Positions 2,650 to 35,061 of a stretch of DNA of 47,202 nucleotides are shown here, in pieces. Source of the DNA: Nitrospirota bacterium (GTDB lineage Bacteria; Nitrospirota; UBA9217). A program made the translations under genes and the position numbers. Position 1 is the first letter of the stretch; each line of letters begins with the position of its first letter. The stretch spans positions 1 through 47,202 of the forward strand of contig JAOUEV010000026.1 in the NCBI GenBank assembly GCA_029858565.1, read 5' to 3'. The notes beneath the pieces are model-generated. The model did not search any database. It was not told the origin of the DNA and saw only the letters and a program-made list of their open reading frames with translations.

Positions 2650-4284
2650 ATGGAAAAGAAGACCGAAGGGAGCGGACAGGACTGGCTGCTGCGGTACAAG
2701 AAGAAGATCATTCTTGCGATCGTGTGGATCATCACCGCCGCGGTCGTGCTCACCATGCTCACCATTGCCTGGACCTTGCGGGCGCAACTGATGACCCAGA
2801 GCATGCTGCAGGCCCAGGAACTGGGAGCGCTTATCCACTCGAGCCTGAACCACCTGATGCAGGTGCGCGATCCGGACAGGATGCAGACCACATTGGAGGC
2901 CATCGGACGCGAGAACCCCTCGCTCGTCCGTGCATTCATTCTCGACAGCCGCGGCAGGGTCGCCTATTCAACGGACCGCCGGGAGATCGACTCGGTCATC
3001 GACCGGTTCACCCACGTGTCCTGCAAAGGGTGTCACAGCGGCGCTGTCGTGGTGCCTCATGACACGACCATGACCATAACCATCGAAGGCAAACGGGTGC
3101 AACGGTACGTGCATGTCATAGAGAACCAGCCGTCCTGTCACGGCTGCCACGCGGCGTCTACACGGATCAACGGCAAGCTGATCATCGACCGGTCCCTTGA
3201 GGCCACCGACGCGCTGGTCAGGACCGTGGTTGCCATCATCTGCATTCTGGGGTTCGGATGCCTTCTGGTCCTGGTGCCCTTTCTGTGGCGGATCCTGTCA
3301 AAAGGCGTTAATACCTACATTGCCGAGATCCGGCTCAAGTCATCGGAACTGGTCACGCTCTACAGTATAGTCGAGCGTCTGAGCACGACCATCGACCTTG
3401 AGGAACTGAAGAGGATCATCATTGACATCATCAGCGACGCCTACCGCGCCGATGAGATCGACATGGTCATGCCCAGCGAGTACCGGGAAATGGGCGCGAT
3501 CGTCTGGAGCAAGACCGGAAGGTCCATGGCCCGGAAGAAGGTCGATCCCGCGTCGGAACTGCACGGGTTGATTCAGCGATGGCTTGAAGACCCGGCGGCA
3601 GAACCGTCCGTGACCGGCAACGGACGAAGCATTACCATGCCTGTTGCCAAGGGCGGTACGCGGTTGGCCCTCATCGTCGTCCACAGCTCTCAGCAGACCT
3701 TTGACGAGGAACATCTTCCGCTCATACGCGGCATGGCAAACCATATTGCCGTGGCCTTTGACAATGCGATGCTCTACCAGCTGGCGATCACCGACGAACT
3801 GACAGGATTGTACTCGCCCCGCTATTTCCGCCAGGCCATCAGCAAGAAGCATGTGCTCTTTGAAGAGTACGGCGAGAAGATGACCCTGCTCATGGTGGAT
3901 ATTGATAATTTCAAGCGGGTCAATGATACCCATGGCCACCCCGCGGGGGACGCCATCCTCAAGGAGGTCAGCCGGTGCATTCTGAGCGCTGTCCGCACCG
4001 ATGACCTGGCGTTCCGGTACGGAGGCGAGGAATTCGCCGTTATCCTGCCGGCAACGGATCCTGATGCGGGAAAGGCCGTTGCCGAACGGATGCGGGCGCT
4101 GATCGAGCATTATCCGTTCAAGGCGGACCAGCACGTTCTATCGATAACCGTGAGCATAGGGATCGCGGCCTGGCCCGCGAGCGCCGAGACCATCAAGGAG
4201 ATCATCCTGCAGGCGGATAAGGCGCTGTACGAGGCCAAACACAGCGGGAAGAACCGGGTTGTGGTGAGGGAAGGCAAGGAGTAA
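2650..4284 (+). CDS. Membrane diguanylate cyclase with periplasmic di-haem (CXXCH) sensor domain
   Basis: Predicted inner-membrane enzyme making cyclic di-GMP from two GTP. Domains in order: TM helix about residues 17-39; a periplasmic domain of about 130 residues with two c-type haem motifs, CKGCH (about 125) and CHGCH (about 163); TM helix about 180-202; a GAF-like linker about 225-365; and a GGDEF domain with the active-site variant GGEEF near residue 458. An inhibitory RxxD site (RTDD) lies five residues upstream of it, so product inhibition is likely. The start at 2650 is preferred because GAGGAA precedes it; in-frame ATG 2629 and TTG 2623 lack a ribosome site. Haem ligation is inferred from the motifs and would need the cytochrome c maturation system. 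A plausible signal is redox state or a gas. Confidence 0.88.
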   Translation: MEKKTEGSGQDWLLRYKKKIILAIVWIITAAVVLTMLTIAWTLRAQLMTQSMLQAQELGALIHSSLNHLMQVRDPDRMQTTLEAIGRENPSLVRAFILDSRGRVAYSTDRREIDSVIDRFTHVSCKGCHSGAVVVPHDTTMTITIEGKRVQRYVHVIENQPSCHGCHAASTRINGKLIIDRSLEATDALVRTVVAIICILGFGCLLVLVPFLWRILSKGVNTYIAEIRLKSSELVTLYSIVERLSTTIDLEELKRIIIDIISDAYRADEIDMVMPSEYREMGAIVWSKTGRSMARKKVDPASELHGLIQRWLEDPAAEPSVTGNGRSITMPVAKGGTRLALIVVHSSQQTFDEEHLPLIRGMANHIAVAFDNAMLYQLAITDELTGLYSPRYFRQAISKKHVLFEEYGEKMTLLMVDIDNFKRVNDTHGHPAGDAILKEVSRCILSAVRTDDLAFRYGGEEFAVILPATDPDAGKAVAERMRALIEHYPFKADQHVLSITVSIGIAAWPASAETIKEIILQADKALYEAKHSGKNRVVVREGKE

Positions 4285-34555: not shown

Positions 34556-34584
34556 TTGACAAAGCTCAGCTAGTGATTTAATAA
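34556..34584 (+). promoter_or_regulatory. Promoter of the rhodanese gene
   Basis: TTGACA (34556-34561) and TAATAA (34579-34584) are 17 bases apart; the predicted start near 34591 gives a leader of about 30 bases. Confidence 0.6.
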
Positions 34585-34620
34585 GTAAACAGATGTTTGA
34601 AAATAAGGTATATGTGAAAA

Positions 34621-35061
34621 ATGTTGAAAGTAGAAAAAAAGATAAATATTATCATATCGTTAGCGATTCTATTGATGCTTGGCCCGTCGACTGCCTATGC
34701 TGCGATCACGGTCATAGATGCTGAACAACTGAAGACTCTGCTTGAGGGCACTGGAACAAAGATACTCATCGATACCCGATCTCGGGATGAGTATCGAGAG
34801 GCCCATATTCCCTCGGCTGTGAACATACCCCCCGACCGTATGCATGCAGAGCGGAAACGATTGCCCAAGAACAAGTCCATTCCGCTCATATTCTATTGCA
34901 GAGGCGTCGGCTGAACGCTGAGTCATGCCGGCGCGGTCGCGGCGGCGGAGATGGGCTTTGGCACCCTTATTATTTTTCAGGGAGGGATGCCGGAATGGTC
35001 TGGAAAGATGCTGCCCATAGCAGTCGGCAGCAAGCCCGGATCATACACAACGTCACAGTGA
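34621..35061 (+). CDS. Secreted rhodanese-fold protein with in-frame UGA (candidate selenoprotein)
   Basis: The first 97 codons give a signal peptide (about 1-27, ending STAYA) and a rhodanese domain start (KILIDTRSRDEYREAHIPSAVNIPP, then IFYCRGVG with the active-site-loop Cys93). Codon 98 is TGA (34912-34914). The same frame continues without a break as TLSHAGAVAAAEMGFGTL and IIFQGGMPEWSGKML to TGA 35059-35061. Those residues are the normal second half of a rhodanese (GGMPEW). In relatives with a YCxGxxCxLS loop, the UGA position is a second cysteine. A GC-rich hairpin with a GGUC loop starts 13 bases after the UGA. Selenocysteine is the simplest functional reading; a nonsense mutation is the alternative. 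Sulfur transfer in the periplasm is inferred from the family. Confidence 0.7.
34927..34946 (+). promoter_or_regulatory. SECIS-like hairpin downstream of the UGA codon
   Basis: GCCG (34927-34930) pairs with CGGC (34943-34946), then after one G-G mismatch CGC (34932-34934) pairs with GCG (34939-34941), leaving a four-base loop GGTC (34935-34938). The loop begins 21 bases after the UGA at 34912-34914. Bacterial SECIS elements are short stem-loops at about this distance with G and U in the apical loop. The region is GC-rich, so chance pairing is possible. Confidence 0.5.

What the first reader, a model, noticed from the sequence alone, without database searches (positions are those of the whole stretch)
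34621..35061. Candidate selenocysteine-containing secreted rhodanese
The rhodanese frame runs through a single in-frame TGA (34912-34914) and continues with well-conserved family sequence (TLSH..., GGMPEW) for another 48 codons. The UGA replaces the second Cys of a YCxGxxCxLS-type loop. A stem-loop with a GGUC apical loop begins 13 bases later, at the distance expected of a bacterial SECIS. This would give an active-site loop with Cys93 and Sec98, so a selenenylsulfide-type periplasmic sulfurtransferase is conceivable. The gene has its own good promoter and the sequence after the UGA shows no decay, which argues against an old pseudogene. I recall that Sec-containing rhodanese-like proteins have been proposed by comparative genomics, but have not checked this.
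Basis: partly seen in the sequence, partly recalled or inferred. Interest (0 to 1): 0.88.

Follow-up and report, generated by a model that had tools for sequence, protein, structure and literature searches.

The report
Selenocysteine-containing exported rhodanese in Nitrospirota
The in-frame stop codon in this sulfur-handling gene is almost certainly read as the rare amino acid selenocysteine: the genome has the machinery, an RNA signal that relatives preserve follows the codon, and every relative examined has selenocysteine or cysteine at that spot. It is a well-supported new member of a kind of protein already predicted elsewhere.

Summary
Confirmed. Window 34621-35061 encodes a 146-aa exported single-domain rhodanese whose TGA at 34912-34914 (residue 98) is very probably selenocysteine (Sec). 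The genome, a Nitrospirota MAG, holds selA, selB, tRNA-Sec with anticodon TCA, and two selD genes that themselves carry an in-frame TGA. Nine of 12 syntenic orthologues in the class keep TGA; the other three have TGT (Cys). Among 61 relatives from three phyla the site is TGA in 43 and Cys in 18. A hairpin with a GGUC-type loop starts 20 nt after the UGA; across 21 Sec genes it shows compensatory changes (one pair is CG, UA, AU or GC, always paired), and that pair is broken in all four Cys genes compared. Two other rhodanese genes of this genome carry TGA at the same loop position. Best mechanism: Cys93 is the persulfide-bearing nucleophile and Sec98, sixth residue of the same loop, its redox partner; this is inferred, not shown. 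Sec-rhodanese forms, including a 'UxxS' motif this protein fits, are already listed by comparative genomics, so it is a new member of a known kind. Extra: the gene heads a conserved operon with an IclR regulator, behind a palindrome found once per genome.

The parts
34621..35061 (+). Sec-containing exported single-domain rhodanese (146 aa, Sec98), terminal TGA included
34621..34701 (+). probable signal peptide MLKVEKKINIIISLAILLMLGPSTAYA (by eye; orthologues have a similar N-terminus ending near A-x-A)
   Evidence: sequence. No signal-peptide predictor was run
34897..34899 (+). Cys93 codon (TGC), canonical rhodanese nucleophile position, invariant
34912..34914 (+). UGA codon for Sec98, sixth residue of the active-site loop C-R-G-V-G-U
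34926..34947 (+). bacterial SECIS hairpin; apical loop GGUC at 34935-34938, 20 nt after the UGA
34556..34561 (+). invariant TTGACA (-35-like element)
34586..34600 (+). palindrome TAAACA-GA-TGTTTGA, probable operator; one exact match in the whole genome
35099..35896 (+). IclR-family regulator directly downstream, in synteny in all orthologues

Best explanation
A selenoprotein gene. SelB, bound to the hairpin just after the UGA, delivers Sec-tRNA(Sec) to UGA 34912-34914, giving a 146-aa preprotein that is exported to the periplasm. In the rhodanese fold Cys93 is the nucleophile that takes up a sulfane sulfur (persulfide), and Sec98, at the sixth position of the same loop, is its redox partner: it attacks the persulfide, releases H2S or passes the sulfur on, and forms a Cys93-S-Se-Sec98 bond that a periplasmic dithiol system then reduces. 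Shown by computation: the gene, the machinery, the Sec/Cys exchange at the site, the conserved SECIS, the fold and the synteny. Inferred: periplasmic location, the chemistry of Sec98, the reductant and the natural substrate. The confidence given is for Sec at position 98; for the Cys93-Sec98 redox mechanism alone it is about 0.45.
For: selA (604 bits), selB (389 bits), tRNA-Sec (64 bits; anticodon tca) and two selD genes with in-frame TGA. Class orthologues: 9 TGA, 3 TGT, none with any other residue. 61 relatives in Nitrospirota, Desulfobacterota and Myxococcota: 43 Sec, 18 Cys, at least 7 switches on the tree, 5 forced by well-supported branches. SECIS over 21 Sec genes: 94% of cells paired against 80% in shuffles, covariation 0.383 against 0.092, 0/500 shuffles as high; slid registers give 19-66%; the pair CG:10 UA:8 AU:2 GC:1 is never broken in Sec genes and broken in 4/4 Cys genes. 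Hairpins of Sec genes beat synonymous-codon shuffles (mean z -1.18, Stouffer -6.5) more than Cys ones (Mann-Whitney p = 0.01). Two more rhodanese genes in this genome have TGA at the same place (C66, C29). TGA is an ordinary stop in this genome (15 of 29 window ORFs and this gene's own end). Fold: pLDDT 91.5; best PDB match BH2092, which has C-W-G-P-A-C in the same loop. Three DsbD_TM-family genes could supply periplasmic reductant.
Against: No protein-level evidence. Rfam scan of the 1-kb region is negative. The single-sequence fold is not significant by dinucleotide shuffles. The sequences are related, so shuffle counts overstate significance. selA was not found in two drafts with a TGA copy (G001, G216) and only as a fragment in a third (G551), possibly from incomplete assembly. 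The Cys93-Sec98 bond was not modelled.
Confidence: 0.95

Rival explanations
1. Pseudogene or nonsense mutation: the gene stops at codon 97 and the rest is decaying.
For: By the standard code the ORF ends at 34914 after 97 aa.
Against: The same TGA is present in many species of three phyla; downstream identity is as high as upstream; the site is only ever TGA, TGC or TGT.
Confidence: 0.01
2. Sequencing or assembly error of a Cys codon.
For: A single-base change separates TGA from TGC/TGT, and the source is a MAG.
Against: Independent assemblies from other species and projects show TGA, with a conserved SECIS.
Confidence: 0.01
3. UGA is read by near-cognate suppression or as a switch: a 97-aa truncated form made when selenium is scarce is itself functional.
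For: UGA decoding depends on Se supply in known Sec systems (established knowledge); the truncated form would keep Cys93.
Against: The truncated form would lack the C-terminal part of the rhodanese fold (helix 73-83, strand 89-92 and helix 95-101 of the mature model); the SECIS is maintained in Sec genes and degraded in Cys genes.
Confidence: 0.03
4. Sec98 is used not in a selenenylsulfide with Cys93 but as the sulfur (or selenium) carrier itself, forming a Sec-bound sulfane sulfur, or as a peroxide-reducing residue. (A rival to the mechanism only, not to Sec at position 98.)
For: Selenolates are strong nucleophiles; in a double-Sec relative family (TsoB, UxxxxU) both loop positions are Sec (PMC13188914).
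Against: Cys93 is invariant in all relatives aligned, so Sec does not replace the canonical nucleophile.
Confidence: 0.3

Closest known systems
Sec-containing rhodanese-like protein form 1 (PF00581, motif UxxS, WP_010941598.1), listed in PMC13188914 and PMC9312934
   Same: Rhodanese domain; Sec followed by xxS (here U98-T-L-S101).
   Different: The sequence of WP_010941598.1 could not be fetched, so position within the loop and orthology were not checked; no IclR operon is mentioned in the passages read.
TsoB, rhodanese/DsbD fusion-like selenoprotein (NF045694, UxxxxU)
   Same: Best NCBIfam hit of the window protein (51.7 bits, profile 44-160 of 572); the U-x4-U spacing equals C93-x4-U98.
   Different: TsoB is a 572-position fusion with two Sec; here one Sec, one domain, far below the TsoB cut-off of 805 bits.
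Rhodanese form 3, rhodanese_LYCAU (NF041203, CxU)
   Same: Rhodanese-related selenoprotein; weak match of 39 bits.
   Different: Sec is two residues after the Cys, not five; below the cut-off of 115 bits.
BH2092 of Bacillus halodurans (PDB 3nhv, 3o3w)
   Same: Same fold (Foldseek top hit, TMq 0.80) and loop C-W-G-P-A-C, a Cys opposite Sec98.
   Different: Cys in place of Sec; 28% identity.

Membership tests
Bacterial selenoprotein | Sec machinery (selA, selB, selC, selD) in the genome | tested here: met
Bacterial selenoprotein | in-frame UGA with conserved flanks, aligned to Cys in homologues | tested here: met
Bacterial selenoprotein | bSECIS: loop of 3-9 nt, upper stem of 4-16 bp, G in first two loop positions, 16-37 nt after the UGA, MFE of -7.5 kcal/mol or lower (criteria from PMC13188914) | tested here: met
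   loop GGUC, 20 nt, 3+5 pairs around one mismatch, -14.8 kcal/mol; covariation
Bacterial selenoprotein | Sec present in the protein | not testable with these tools
   needs 75Se labelling or mass spectrometry
Rhodanese (PF00581) | domain match above the gathering score and catalytic Cys at the start of the loop | tested here: met
   64 bits against 22.2; Cys93 invariant
Rhodanese (PF00581) | sulfurtransferase activity | not testable with these tools
   needs an enzyme assay
TsoB (NF045694) | fusion length and score cut-off of 805 bits, two Sec | tested here: not met
   51.7 bits, one Sec
rhodanese_LYCAU, form 3 (NF041203) | CxU motif and cut-off of 115 bits | tested here: not met
   39.1 bits; C-x4-U
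Sec-rhodanese form 1 (UxxS) | UxxS motif in a rhodanese domain | tested here: met
   U98-T-L-S101; motif from PMC13188914
Sec-rhodanese form 1 (UxxS) | orthology to WP_010941598.1 | not tested

The most novel reading that the evidence does not exclude
A distinct subfamily of exported Cys-x4-Sec rhodaneses that works as a selenium-dependent periplasmic persulfide reductase through a Cys-Sec selenenylsulfide, controlled in this Nitrospirota class by a dedicated IclR regulator with a single operator in the genome.
Probability: 0.3. Interest if true: 0.6.

Novelty: new member of a known kind. Interest (0 to 1): 0.42.

Why it matters
It gives Sec-rhodaneses, so far mostly motif entries in tables, a comparative case with a covarying SECIS, repeated Sec/Cys exchange and a conserved operon. 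Annotation by the standard code would cut such genes at residue 97. Cys orthologues at syntenic loci offer natural Sec-to-Cys comparisons for asking what selenium adds to sulfur transfer.

Tried and rejected
Pseudogene, sequencing error and genome-wide TGA recoding were considered and rejected. Rfam scan: nothing. Single-sequence fold z-score: uninformative. Promoter scan gave no promoter at the conserved TTGACA; its best site overlaps the ORF start. The window protein is not TsoB or LYCAU by cut-off. A literature search for Nitrospirota selenoproteins found nothing specific. ExtH of Geobacter (rhodanese-like, PMC5877670) was looked at as a relative but not compared by sequence. Model coordinates are not exported, so the Cys93-Sec98 distance was not measured.

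Full report
Observation. The frame 34621-35061 reads MLKVEKK...YCRGVG-U-TLSHAGAVAAAEMGFGTLIIFQGGMPEWSGK..., one in-frame TGA at 34912-34914, and ends in TGA at 35059-35061. It matches Pfam Rhodanese across the TGA (64 bits, residues 34-128). In the whole genome the Pfam model hits 13 places; three of them, on different contigs, contain one TGA, and in all three the TGA sits five residues after the loop Cys: YCRGVG-U, YCKGPK-U, FCQGVT-U. TGA is an ordinary stop in this genome (15 of 29 window ORFs examined), so the code is not changed wholesale.

Machinery. The genome has selA (604 bits) next to selB (389 bits) on contig 101, a tRNA-Sec on contig 73 (64 bits; anticodon tca) and two selD genes, each with an in-frame TGA.

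Homologues. In the 14 genomes held of the class, 12 have an orthologue; 9 carry TGA and 3 carry TGT at the codon, nothing else. A scan of named genomes places the group among Nitrospirota MAGs and finds a TGA copy in Anaeromyxobacter oryzae, Myxococcota. More TGA copies occur in other Nitrospirota families and in genomes of the phylum of a Desulfocapsaceae MAG. In a tree of 61 relatives, 43 have Sec and 18 Cys, with at least 7 switches, 5 forced by well-supported branches; within the class one switch explains the three Cys copies. selA was found above cut-off in 32 of 37 genomes examined; G001 and G216 have a TGA copy but no selA hit, probably from draft gaps, though this was not shown. The Cys copies are not simply explained by loss of the machinery: G007 has a Cys copy and a full selA, and G002 keeps a TGA paralogue.

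SECIS. In this gene the hairpin 34926-34947 has the loop GGUC 20 nt after the UGA and -14.8 kcal/mol, within the published bacterial model (PMC13188914). On its own the fold is not exceptional against dinucleotide shuffles. Across 21 Sec genes of at least two phyla (Nitrospirota and Myxococcota) the same register is 94% paired; the pair at columns 30-39 is CG in 10, UA in 8, AU in 2 and GC in 1; no shuffle of 500 reached the observed pairing or covariation, and slid registers fall to 19-66%. In four Cys genes the same register is 71% paired and that pair is broken in all four. Against synonymous-codon shuffles, which keep the protein, Sec genes have stronger hairpins (mean z -1.18) than Cys genes (-0.49), rank test p = 0.01. 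Relatedness inflates these counts; the compensatory changes are the stronger argument.

Protein. The N-terminus looks like a signal peptide (by eye). The mature part folds as a rhodanese (pLDDT 91.5); the top PDB match is BH2092, which has Cys at both loop positions. Cys93 is invariant. The rhodanese loop has six residues beginning with the nucleophile; Sec98 is the sixth, so both chalcogens probably line one pocket (established knowledge plus inference). The best-supported mechanism is a Cys93 persulfide resolved by Sec98. A link to DsbD-type electron supply is suggested by TsoB, a rhodanese/DsbD fusion with U-x4-U at the same spacing (PMC13188914), and by three DsbD_TM genes in this genome. 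I put this mechanism at about 0.45, against about 0.3 for Sec as the carrier itself; the 0.95 in the Best explanation section is for Sec at position 98.

Operon. In all orthologue loci examined the rhodanese is followed by an IclR regulator (69-80% identical), and, in most where the contig reaches, by a PP-loop gene and purD, whether the site is Sec or Cys. Upstream, CTTGACA and the palindrome TAAACA-NN-TGTTT are conserved. The pattern TAAACANNTGTTTNA occurs exactly once in each of 12 of 14 genomes; the hits match this locus. In G012 the rhodanese is absent but the palindrome stands directly before the IclR gene, so the site is probably the regulator's own operator.

Known or new. Sec-rhodaneses have been reported from sequence since 2005 (PMC1088965) and reviews list five forms (PMC13188914; also PMC9312934). 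The present protein fits the UxxS motif of form 1 and is not TsoB or the CxU form. It is a new member of a known kind; the operon and operator, and the comparative SECIS, are additions.

Noticed in passing
34586-34600: Palindrome TAAACA-NN-TGTTT(T/G)A before the rhodanese-iclR operon, exactly once per genome in 12 of 14 class members; kept before iclR in a genome (G012) that lacks the rhodanese.
   Followed up: yes
L033 (C29:8000-16054), frame 2673-4211: Multi-domain rhodanese with an N-terminal CxNCH motif and one in-frame TGA in its first rhodanese domain (FCQGVT-U-AMS); conserved with TGA in seven other class members (L049, L050, L052-L056).
   Followed up: partly
L032 (C66:1-4000), about 249-983: Two-domain exported rhodanese with TGA in the first domain (YCKGPK-U-TKS); its nearest relatives in the tree have Cys.
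   Followed up: partly
L026 and L027: Two selD genes in one genome, both with in-frame TGA near the N-terminus (GAG-U-ACK and TCG-U-AAK).
   Followed up: no
L113 (C271 of genome G398): A CxU-type rhodanese (YCA-U-PNE, form 3-like) in a Desulfobulbaceae MAG, showing the two Sec positions occur in related lineages.
   Followed up: no
L080: A single-domain relative with a longer loop (YCHGGTSG-U) that still has TGA at the corresponding place.
   Followed up: no
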